NCBI GenBank assembly: GCA_017508385.1
Contig: JAFVZB010000085.1
Location: forward strand, 1-64,000
Reading direction: 5' to 3'
Source of the DNA: Lentisphaeria bacterium
GTDB taxonomy: Bacteria > Verrucomicrobiota > Lentisphaeria > Victivallales > Victivallaceae
Length of the DNA stretch: 64,000 bases
The notes under the pieces were generated by a model. The model had not been told where the DNA came from. It saw only the letters and a program-made list of their open reading frames with translations, and made no database searches. Position numbers and translations under genes: made by a program. Positions 42,320 to 64,000 of the stretch are shown here, one piece after another (the first letter of the stretch is position 1; each line of letters opens with the position of its first letter).

Positions 42320-42354
42320 TCATATGCCGGACGGGGTCAATCTGAAACATATGT

Positions 42355-42436
42355 GATTTCCTACGCCGGCATTATCCGGTTCAGGTTCCATGGGTGTGAT
42401 CTCAGCCGTGCCCGCCTTTCGGGAACGGCACCCCAA
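42355..42436 (-). promoter_or_regulatory. TPP (THI-box) riboswitch
   Basis: Read on the minus strand, the sequence contains GGGGTGCCG, a P3 extension CCCGAAAGGCGGG, GGCTGAGATCACACCC, GAACCTGAACCGGATAAT and GCCGGCGTAGG. These are the diagnostic conserved elements of the TPP aptamer. It lies in the leader of thi4-thiE and should repress the operon when thiamine pyrophosphate is abundant. Confidence 0.95.
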
Positions 42437-42447
42437 ACACATTGTTT

Positions 42448-59542: not shown

Positions 59543-60385
59543 TCAGTTGAGCTCGGATCTGTCAGGTTTGTTCGGATAGAGCCAGTTGAGGGCGTTATCG
59601 TTGGTGTGGCTGTTGGCAATCGGAGTCGGGATAAGTTTGCAGTGACCGTCGGCAAAGAGAGTTGAAACCTGACCGTTGTGTCTTGCACTGACATAACCGA
59701 TACTGTTGGTGGTGTCAGCCCATGAGTCAAGTTCTCCGGGGCCGAGCAGAACGTTGAGCTTGGGGCTGATGTAGGGGTATTTATCACCATCGCTGTCTCT
59801 GCCGTCGTCATGGTCGGTGGTCATAGGAGTCTGTGACGGAGTTTTAACGATGAGGTGGTGTCCCCAGTTGGCGGCGTTCATCCAGAGACCGTTCCAGTTT
59901 TTGGAGCCTTTCGATTTCGGATTGCCGCTGACGAAGTTGTTCATTCCGTATGAGAAGTAACGGATGTTGGGGTATTTCATGCTTTTGTTGTTGCCGGCAG
60001 GGTTGTTGTCTGACGGGCAGACCAGAACGTTGTTCGGCTTAGTGATATCAGAAGAGATGTACTTCCAGCATTTTGAGTGGCCGGTTGTAGTGATGAACAT
60101 TGCCCAGGAGTAGCCATCGTTTGCTGCAGTACGCGGACAGGCGTTTTTGAGAATGGCATCGTATCCTGAATCACCCTGAGGATAGTATTGCGGAATGTAC
60201 CAGCCTTTGAAGTCCTGCATATAACCCATATTGGCAAGACCGATTTGTTTGAGATTGTTGAGGCAGGTGGCAGATTTTCCCCGCTCACGGGCACTTGAAA
60301 GAGCAGGCATCAGAATTGATGCCAGAATAGCGATTATCGCTATAACTACGAGCAGTTCAATAAGTGTGAAGAGTTGTTTTTTCAT
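59543..60385 (-). CDS. Pseudopilin-like H-X9-DG protein
   Basis: The ATG after AAGGAG (9 bases) gives 280 residues. The N-terminus [20 protein letters not shown] is a type IV pilin/type II secretion signal, but the residue before FTLIE is Leu rather than Gly. CLNNLKQIG and the C-terminal RHN..FADGH give the H-X9-DG family pattern. Proteins of this group are very numerous in Lentisphaerota and Planctomycetota and often lie beside glycan genes. Whether it assembles into a pseudopilus is unknown. Confidence 0.85.
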
Positions 60386-60431
60386 AGTGTTGTACTCCTT
60401 AGTTTTGACGTTGTTGTTTTGTCTCTGGTTT

Positions 60432-60461
60432 ATTATACTTTGTAACCAGTGGTTTTTGCAA
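60432..60461 (-). promoter_or_regulatory. Promoter of the pseudopilin/beta-helix operon
   Basis: On the minus strand TTGCAA (60461-60456) and a perfect TATAAT (60437-60432) are 18 bp apart. The direct repeats of the putative AraC operator lie directly upstream. Confidence 0.6.
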
Positions 60462-60469
60462 TACATTTG

Positions 60470-61566: not shown

Positions 61567-61674
61567 GCATGGTGCCGCCGGAATTTTCCGGGCGATTTTG
61601 ATGCCGGAAACATCCGTTTTTATACGTTGTGAGAGAAAAAGTGTCATTTTTCGTTAAAATAAATGCAAAATGAC

Positions 61675-61704
61675 TTGATAATATTGCAAAAGGACTTATA
61701 TTAT
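61675..61704 (+). promoter_or_regulatory. Promoter of the nusA leader RNA
   Basis: TTGATA (61675-61680) is followed by overlapping -10 candidates TATATT (16-bp spacer) and TATTAT (18-bp spacer). Two copies of GCAAAA[T/G]GACTT (61665-61676, 61686-61697), 21 bp apart, overlap the core promoter. No other promoter is visible before nusA. Confidence 0.55.
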
Positions 61705-61710
61705 CTTTTG

Positions 61711-61874
61711 TGATTGAAAGATCTGCACGGCAAAGATTGCCGGATGGTCTCCCCGCCGGAGTGAGGAACTCCGGTCCTTGAAGTCGGATGTGCGAAAGTG
61801 CGTCTCCGGGGAAATGTGAGAAATAGAGGGTTATTACCCGGTCAGGAGAAGTGGGAACCGTTCCCGCTTTTTTT
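61711..61874 (+). ncRNA. Structured leader RNA upstream of nusA (candidate)
   Basis: The transcript would fold into a hairpin CGGCAA-AGA-UUGCCG inside a GAUC/GGUC stem (61720-61749). A closing stem UCCCCG/CGGGGA (61750-61755 with 61807-61812) encloses CCGGAGU-GAGGA-ACUCCGG and GUGC-GAAA-GUGC. Then come GGGU-UAUU-ACCC and a terminator. It has no match I recognise among RNase P, tmRNA, 6S, SRP or common riboswitches. It could be a small RNA or an attenuation leader. Confidence 0.6.
61851..61874 (+). terminator. Terminator between the leader RNA and nusA
   Basis: GTGGGAA pairs with TTCCCGC across a 3-base loop, with seven Ts directly after. The nusA start is 77 bases downstream with no visible promoter between, so read-through must supply nusA mRNA. 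Confidence 0.75.
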
Positions 61875-61950
61875 GTTTTTTGCGTGCAGAAGATAAAATC
61901 TGAAGAAGAACGGAAAAGCAGAAAGTAAAAAAAAGAAAGAGAGGTAGATT

Positions 61951-63186
61951 ATGGCAAATGAACTGCTCACAATTTTGGAATACATCGAACGCGAGCGCGG
62001 TATCAGTCGTGAGAGCATCACCGGAGCTCTTGAGAAAGCCATCAAAAATGCTTCCCACAAAAGTATCCATCCCGCAAGCAATCTCGATGTGGTGATCGAC
62101 CCCGCCACCGGTTCTATCAAGGCTTATGTTACGCTTGAAGTTGTGGAAGAGAATCCCAACAACGACCAGCTGGTCATCGACCGTGCCCGTGAGCGTTATC
62201 CCGAGGTACAGCTCGGCGATGTCGTCAAGTGGGAGGTCACTCCCCGCAACTTCGGACGCATCGCCGCTCAGACCGCCCGTCAGGCGATCATAAATGAGCT
62301 GCGCAAAGCCGAGAAAGCCACGGTCAACGACGAGTTCGCCGAGCGTGTGGGGCAAATCATTACAGGAACAGTCCGCAGAGTCGATAACGGCAACATCATC
62401 ATCGACTTCCAGAAAGCCGAAGGAATCATGGCGGGCCGTGACCGCATCCACGATGAGGAGTATTATCCCGGTGACCACATCAACGCTCTGCTGGTCAAGG
62501 TTGACAGCAATACTTCCGGACCCAGTTTGATCGTTTCCCGCAGCAATCCGGAGTTCGTGGCGAAACTTTTTGAGCGTGAGGTGAGCGAGATCCGTGACGG
62601 ACTGGTCAAAATCATGGGCATCGCCCGTGAGCCCGGCAGACGCACCAAGATCGCTGTGATGTCAACTGACAGCCGTGTCGATCCCGTCGGAGCCTGTGTC
62701 GGAGTCCGCGGCAGCAGAGTCCGCCGTATCACCGATGAGCTTGAGAATGAGCGTATCGACATCATTCCCTACGATGCCGATATCAAAAAGTATGCCGCCA
62801 ACGCCCTGCTGCCCGCCAAGGTGAAAGAGGTGCTGGTCAACGAAGAGAAACACGAGCTCACCGTTATCGTTACCGACGAGCAGTCGAGAGTTGCGTTCGG
62901 CCGCAAGGCTCAGAACATCCGCCTGACCGCAAAACTCATCAACTGGAACATCACTATCCGCAACGAGGAAAGTGAGCCGCAGATCACTCTCGAAGAGAAG
63001 ATGGCGCAGGCGGCTGAAAAACTTGCAGCCGACTTCAATGTTTCAGTGGAAACCGCCAGAGTTCTGGTTTCCAACGGCTACGTCACCATCGACGGCATCA
63101 AGGCAGCCGACGAAAGCGCACTGCTCGAGCTTGACGGTGTCGATGCCGAAGAGATTTCAGAGGCTCTCCGGGAGCTGGAAAAATAA
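61951..63186 (+). CDS. nusA: Transcription termination/antitermination protein NusA
   Basis: The 411-residue protein has the N-terminal RNAP-binding domain, an S1 domain (GQIITGTVRRVDNGNIII, about 137-200) and two KH domains including the GVRGSRVRRI loop. A short C-terminal helix-hairpin segment ends the protein. Its length lies between short Gram-positive and long E. coli forms. It controls pausing, termination and antitermination. GAGAGG precedes the ATG. It is followed by infB after 12 bases, and rimP is absent upstream. Confidence 0.95.
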   Translation: MANELLTILEYIERERGISRESITGALEKAIKNASHKSIHPASNLDVVIDPATGSIKAYVTLEVVEENPNNDQLVIDRARERYPEVQLGDVVKWEVTPRNFGRIAAQTARQAIINELRKAEKATVNDEFAERVGQIITGTVRRVDNGNIIIDFQKAEGIMAGRDRIHDEEYYPGDHINALLVKVDSNTSGPSLIVSRSNPEFVAKLFEREVSEIRDGLVKIMGIAREPGRRTKIAVMSTDSRVDPVGACVGVRGSRVRRITDELENERIDIIPYDADIKKYAANALLPAKVKEVLVNEEKHELTVIVTDEQSRVAFGRKAQNIRLTAKLINWNITIRNEESEPQITLEEKMAQAAEKLAADFNVSVETARVLVSNGYVTIDGIKAADESALLELDGVDAEEISEALRELEK

Positions 63187-63198
63187 GGAGATACTCTC

Positions 63199-64000
63199 AT
63201 GGCTAAACTTACAGTAAAAGATCTTTCCAAGAAATACGGAGTTTCCAGTCAGGAAATCATCCGCGAGCTCTCAGGTCAGGGTCTCGACCTCGACAAGGGC
63301 GATAAGAGTGTTATTCCTGAAGATATGGCTGAATTGGTGGATGCCTTTCTCGATGATGTTTACAACTCAGAAGACAACCACATGGTGAACAACAAGCGCA
63401 ACAGCTCCGGAAACGGTAAGAAAGGTGCGCCCAAACGTGGCAGCGAGAACCAGAAGGGAGCCGACCGCAACAACAATTTCCGCAAAAGCGGCAGCAAAAA
63501 CAGTGACTCTGCCAAGAGTGTCGCCGCCGGAAGCGAGATAACTCTTCAGACTCCCATCGTGGTGAAAAATCTCGCCGAGGCTCTCGGACGCAAGCCCAAT
63601 GAGGTCATCACCGACCTCATCAAACTGGGTGAGCTCGCCGGTATCAATCAGGCGATCAGCGAAGAGCTTGCCCGCAAAGTTTGCGAAAAATACGAGATAA
63701 CTCTGGTCATCGGAGCGGCTGAAAGCAAAAACACCTCCCGCCCGGTCAAGGTCGAGGAGGAGGAAGTTGATGACCCGGCTTCTCTCGTTGAGCGTCCTCC
63801 CGTAGTGACCTTCATGGGACACGTTGACCACGGCAAGACCAGCTTGCAGGATGCCATCCGTCACACCAATGTCACCGCCAAAGAGGCAGGTGCGATCACT
63901 CAGCATATCGGAGCGTCAACCGTCGTCTTCAACGGCAAAGGCATAACCTTCATCGACACTCCCGGACACGCCGCTTTCTCAAATATGCGTGCCCGCGGAG
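63199..64000 (+). CDS. infB: Translation initiation factor IF-2 (5' part, cut by window edge)
   Basis: The ATG has AAGGAG 8 bases upstream and the frame stays open to the end (267 codons seen). The N-terminal domain ([12 protein letters not shown]) and a Lys/Asn/Ser-rich linker precede a second IF2-N domain. The GTPase domain begins near residue 206 with [11 protein letters not shown] and continues to IDTPGHAAF. It brings initiator tRNA to the 30S subunit. The nusA-infB order is the usual one. Confidence 0.95.

What the first reader, a model, noticed from the sequence alone, without database searches (positions are those of the whole stretch)
61665..61950. Multi-hairpin RNA with a terminator in front of nusA
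A good promoter starts a transcript of about 165 nt that folds into at least five stems, including a closed multi-branch domain with a GNRA loop (GAAA), and ends in a strong intrinsic terminator. The nusA gene has no other visible promoter, so its expression should depend on read-through. That would suit feedback by NusA, which itself acts on termination. It could also be an independent small RNA or an unrecognised riboswitch. I could not match it to a known class.
Basis: partly seen in the sequence, partly recalled or inferred. Interest (0 to 1): 0.62.

Follow-up and report, generated by a model that had tools for sequence, protein, structure and literature searches.

The report
NusA-leader terminator, lineage-specific upstream hairpins
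The RNA in front of the nusA gene is a short leader ending in a built-in stop signal that this whole bacterial phylum keeps before nusA, probably so that NusA can limit its own production; the eye-catching extra hairpins occur in only two species, and the principle is already known from Bacillus.

Summary
The promoter, the roughly 170-nt leader with several stems and the intrinsic terminator are really there. Comparison with relatives changes the emphasis. The conserved unit is a promoter plus a terminator hairpin (AAGUGGG-n-CCCGC-U6), mostly 34-190 nt before nusA. A terminator occurs there in 73 of 87 nusA upstream regions of the same order (1.7% of shuffles) and 43 of 59 further sequences, 54 of them from other orders or classes, with covariation in the stem. 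In the window's own genome the hairpin pattern occurs once, before nusA. The multi-branch domain with the GAAA loop is not widespread: DNA and covariance-model searches find it in the window and one sister species only. The terminator closely resembles the published rimP-leader attenuator, and B. subtilis NusA is known to regulate itself by NusA-stimulated termination in its own leader. The RimP_N domain was found in none of 115 genomes of this phylum, so here the attenuator stands directly before nusA, which favours nusA rather than rimP as the controlled gene. I judge it a rimP-less variant of a known attenuator; NusA feedback is likely but untested in this phylum. Riboswitch, antiterminator and independent sRNA readings have little support.

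The parts
61675..61704 (+). Promoter of the nusA leader: -35 TTGATA (61675-61680), -10 TATATT (61697-61702) or TATTAT (61699-61704); predicted start about 61709
   Evidence: Consensus scan 10/12; TTGATA/TTGACA with TATATT at the same place before nusA in most genomes of the family
61708..61842 (+). Multi-hairpin leader domain (P1 61720-23/61746-49; hairpin 61728-33/61737-42; closing helix 61750-55/61807-12; P3 61756-62/61768-74; P4 61786-93/61798-805 with GAAA loop; P5 61828-31/61836-39); lineage-specific
   Evidence: Fold z -2.2 without the terminator; homologue only in G015; two-sequence consensus fold z -3.1 or -2.0 depending on alignment
61843..61881 (+). Intrinsic terminator / attenuator hairpin, core GUGGG (61851-55) and CCCGC (61863-67), followed by the U tract
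   Evidence: conserved before nusA in 73/87 same-order and 43/59 further sequences; covariation; single occurrence of the pattern in the genome
61882..61950 (+). A-rich, weakly structured 5' UTR between terminator and nusA, with Shine-Dalgarno-like AGAGAGG at about 61938-61944
   Evidence: Sequence; fold z -1.1 for the 75 nt after the terminator
61951..63186 (+). nusA (NusA_N and KH_5 over the Pfam cut-off; S1 and KH_2 matches just below it), the presumed controlled gene and effector
   Evidence: TIGR01953 368.5 bits, Pfam
63199..64000 (+). infB (IF-2), next gene of the presumed operon, cut by the window end
   Evidence: TIGR00487, IF2_N

Best explanation
This is the transcription attenuator of the nusA-infB operon. 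RNA polymerase starts at about 61709, transcribes the leader and meets the intrinsic terminator at 61843-61881. Part of the transcripts stop there as a roughly 170-nt RNA; the rest read through into nusA-infB. NusA stimulates termination at this hairpin, so high NusA lowers its own supply, as in B. subtilis. The promoter-like and terminator sequences, gene order and conservation are shown here; that termination occurs, is partial and depends on NusA is inferred. The multi-hairpin domain upstream is a lineage-specific enlargement that may tune folding, pausing or RNA stability and is not needed for the basic mechanism.
For: A terminator lies before nusA (within 220 nt) in 73/87 same-order genomes against 1.7% of dinucleotide shuffles and in 43/59 further sequences. 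The stem covaries: the second core pair is U.G, U-A or C-G and never C.A in 86 cases; the outer A-U pair is replaced by G-C in 10 of 46 sequences. GTGGG-n-CCCGCTTTTT occurs once in the window's genome, at nusA, and 20 of 29 occurrences in 60 genomes are at nusA (compared with nusA places). A matching promoter precedes it in most relatives. RimP_N is found in 0 of 115 genomes of the phylum, so nusA is the first gene. The B. subtilis mechanism is reported in PMC12288461, the conserved leader terminator in PMC2965389.
Against: No transcript data. Several relatives show no such terminator (for example the genus of G108-G115). The window's U tract is long and its hairpin can extend to 15 pairs, so termination might be strong rather than marginal. 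Read-through from the upstream araC-type gene is not excluded. NusA binding or dependence was not tested.
Confidence: 0.7

Rival explanations
1. The terminator works constitutively: it sets a fixed low read-through, or insulates nusA from transcription entering from upstream, with no feedback by NusA.
For: No antiterminator or sensing domain is conserved; the extended hairpin and long U tract look strong.
Against: A promoter directly upstream of the terminator in most relatives makes pure insulation odd. The sequence conservation and specificity of the core go beyond what a generic terminator needs, and NusA feedback is established in B. subtilis (PMC12288461).
Confidence: 0.17
2. The upstream multi-hairpin domain is a sensor (riboswitch-like or protein-binding) that switches the terminator through an antiterminator formed by GGUCUCCCC (61746-61754) and the terminator's 5' arm GUGGGAACC (61851-61859).
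For: Before the 3' arm is made, the predicted fold pairs these two stretches with probability mostly above 0.9; both are identical in the sister species; the same CUCCCC also forms the closing helix of the domain.
Against: The pairing is no better than with shuffled leaders (-8.9 against a mean of -8.3 kcal/mol, z -0.4), the complete terminator fold is far more stable, and the domain exists in only two species.
Confidence: 0.08
3. The short terminated RNA is an independent small RNA acting in trans.
For: A promoter and a terminator delimit a discrete RNA of about 170 nt.
Against: Relatives keep the terminator before nusA but not the RNA body, which differs in length and sequence between species, and no Rfam RNA matches.
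Confidence: 0.05

Closest known systems
rimP-leader, general form (Naville and Gautheret 2010, PMC2965389, Figure 2b)
   Same: Intrinsic terminator with a G-rich 5' arm and C-rich 3' arm followed by a U tract, shortly before the operon that holds nusA and infB; sequence-conserved stem; no conserved larger element and no statistically supported antiterminator
   Different: rimP is missing and nusA is the first gene; the loop-closing pair is variable here (C-G in 4 of 86) where the paper reports GGGc...gCCC; the second core pair is often a U.G wobble; the main text of the paper does not mention Verrucomicrobia or Lentisphaerae
B. subtilis nusA autoregulation by NusA-stimulated termination in the 5' leader (reviewed in PMC12288461, whose reference 34 is cited for it)
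   Same: Terminator in the leader of the nusA operon; negative feedback by NusA through termination
   Different: NusA dependence is reported there and only inferred here
Rfam RF01770 rimP
   Same: Same genomic neighbourhood (nusA operon leader)
   Different: 102-position model with gathering score 47; none of 100 genomes reaches it and no listed match lies at nusA

Membership tests
rimP-leader (general form) | Conserved G-rich/C-rich terminator stem followed by a U tract before the operon | tested here: met
rimP-leader (general form) | GGGc...gCCC motif with C-G loop-closing pair | tested here: not met
   Window GGGa...uCCC; C-G in only 4 of 86 relatives; the GGG/CCC part is met
rimP-leader (general form) | Lies before rimP, first gene of rimP-nusA-infB | tested here: not met
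   Lies before nusA; RimP_N in 0 of 40 relatives and 0 of 115 phylum genomes, control genomes positive in 10 of 14
rimP-leader (general form) | Distance from terminator to gene start 4-130 nt | tested here: met
   About 83 nt from the end of the core stem to the ATG in the window; the 5' arm lies at a median of 78.5 nt before the gene in 86 relatives, with a few beyond 130
rimP-leader (general form) | No visible antiterminator | tested here: inconclusive
   No pairing beyond chance, but a candidate pairing exists in the window
Rfam RF01770 | Covariance-model score at or above 47 bits | tested here: not met
   0 of 100 genomes
NusA-autoregulated attenuator | Termination in the leader stimulated by NusA | not testable with these tools
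   Needs in vitro transcription or a depletion strain
Housekeeping RNAs (6S, SRP, RNase P, tmRNA) | Match to the Rfam family or ARAGORN | tested here: not met
   No match in the window; no 6S found anywhere in the genome

The most novel reading that the evidence does not exclude
In two sister species the nusA attenuator has acquired a structured sensor domain that competes with the terminator through the GGUCUCCCC/GUGGGAACC pairing, turning simple NusA feedback into a switch that answers a further signal.
Probability: 0.07. Interest if true: 0.65.

Novelty: new variant of a known kind. Interest (0 to 1): 0.36.

Why it matters
The paper that described the rimP-leader left open whether RimP or NusA is the sensing protein. 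A phylum in which RimP is not detectable but the leader terminator persists directly before nusA is natural evidence that the element serves nusA, and it extends NusA-linked attenuation to Verrucomicrobiota and Lentisphaerota. Victivallis vadensis DSM 14823, a named strain, carries the short form and could be used to test it.

Tried and rejected
Rfam at gathering and permissive thresholds: only a distant TPP riboswitch in the window. A second copy in the genome (C87, 80% over 41 nt): lies inside a 255-aa membrane-protein coding sequence, chance. 6S RNA: none found in the genome, and the leader does not match it. Leader peptide: the GTG at the predicted start opens a frame that an indel breaks in the sister species, rejected. 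Antiterminator: no better than shuffled leaders. Covariance model of the domain: only the two training sequences recovered. Second nusA promoter: not conserved.

Full report
Observation. The region was read directly. A sigma-70-like promoter (TTGATA, TATATT/TATTAT) scores 10 of 12. Rfam release 15 has no match here, even permissively. The gene downstream is NusA and is followed by infB; the gene upstream is an AraC-type regulator on the same strand.

Relatives. Close relatives in the named collection are Lentisphaerae/Lentisphaeria metagenome assemblies, several from ruminant guts, and Victivallis vadensis. A DNA search with the leader finds one full homologue in 34 genus genomes, 72% identical and also directly before nusA. 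I therefore collected the upstream regions of nusA: 87 from genus, family and order and 59 others, 5 of them from the window's family and 54 from other orders or classes.

The conserved element. In 73 of 87 regions a hairpin followed by a U tract lies within 220 nt before nusA; the same test passes in 1.7% of shuffled regions. In the 59 further regions 43 have one within 300 nt (no shuffle control was run there, and a few of these hairpins are of other types). Eighty-six of 146 carry the exact core G[U/C]GGG...CCC[G/A]C; pair two is U.G in 50, C-G in 18 and U-A in 18, and the non-pair C.A never occurs (Fisher p 0.018, which ignores relatedness). On an alignment of 46 hairpins, 98.3% of cells are paired, the outer A-U pair changes on both sides in 11 sequences, and the covariation score exceeds all 500 shuffles and all slid versions. 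I chose these 46 because they hold the motif, so the percentage paired is inflated; the double changes lie in the outer pair, which the motif did not fix. In the window's genome GTGGG-n-CCCGCTTTTT occurs once, at nusA; in 60 genomes 20 of 29 matches are at nusA, and one more sits near a contig end where nusA may be missing. The version with C-G in place of U.G is commoner elsewhere in the genomes.

The leader body. Promoters of the form TTGATA/TTGACA with TATATT precede the terminator in most of the family. The distance from the predicted start to the 5' arm is mostly about 20-70 nt there; the window (about 140 nt), its sister G015 (178) and G006 (147) are long. These start sites are consensus predictions, and some in distant genomes are doubtful. 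A covariance model from the two homologous domains finds only those two in 68 nusA-region loci and in 78 whole genomes of the family. The two-sequence consensus fold has z -3.1 or -2.0 depending on the alignment: some sign of a kept structure, but changes are mostly on one side of a pair and P4 has gained 35 nt at its tip in G015, losing the GAAA loop.

Mechanism. Naville and Gautheret (PMC2965389) described the rimP-leader: a short sequence-conserved terminator before rimP-nusA-infB, no antiterminator in its general form, no larger conserved element, with NusA named as the best candidate effector. A 2025 review (PMC12288461) states that B. subtilis NusA is autoregulated by NusA-stimulated termination in its leader. 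I could not read the primary paper. The arrangement here has the same logic. RimP_N is not detected in 40 relatives or in 115 genomes of the phylum, while 10 of 14 control genomes are positive; a very divergent RimP cannot be excluded. The terminator without rimP argues that the element serves nusA.

Antitermination. With the 3' arm not yet made, the 5' arm GUGGGAACC is predicted to pair with GGUCUCCCC upstream. The pairing is not better than with shuffled leaders in the window or, as a class, in the other leaders tested, so I treat it as a possibility only.

Verdict. The value lies in the phylum-wide conservation of a rimP-less nusA attenuator.

Noticed in passing
window 42341-42445 (-): TPP riboswitch, 74.1 bits, well over the gathering score.
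   Followed up: no
whole phylum (115 genomes): The RimP_N domain is not detected in any genome tested, although control genomes are positive; rimP seems lost or very divergent in this phylum.
   Followed up: partly
L093-L097 (G108, G110, G112, G111, G115): One genus of the order has no recognisable terminator before nusA and a different, internally conserved upstream sequence (around CAGGGGCCTGTGGGGT).
   Followed up: no
window 59543-60466 (-): Protein with a prepilin-like N-terminal stretch ([28 protein letters not shown]); judged by eye only.
   Followed up: no
L032, L033, L036, L038, L047 (leaders of G012, G027, G010, G013, G024): A subgroup shares another leader of about 70 nt with its own hairpins before the GTGGGACGGCAAC terminator; in G012 the pairing of leader and terminator arm (-12.6) is stronger than the short terminator stem estimate (-11.0), though not significant against shuffles.
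   Followed up: partly
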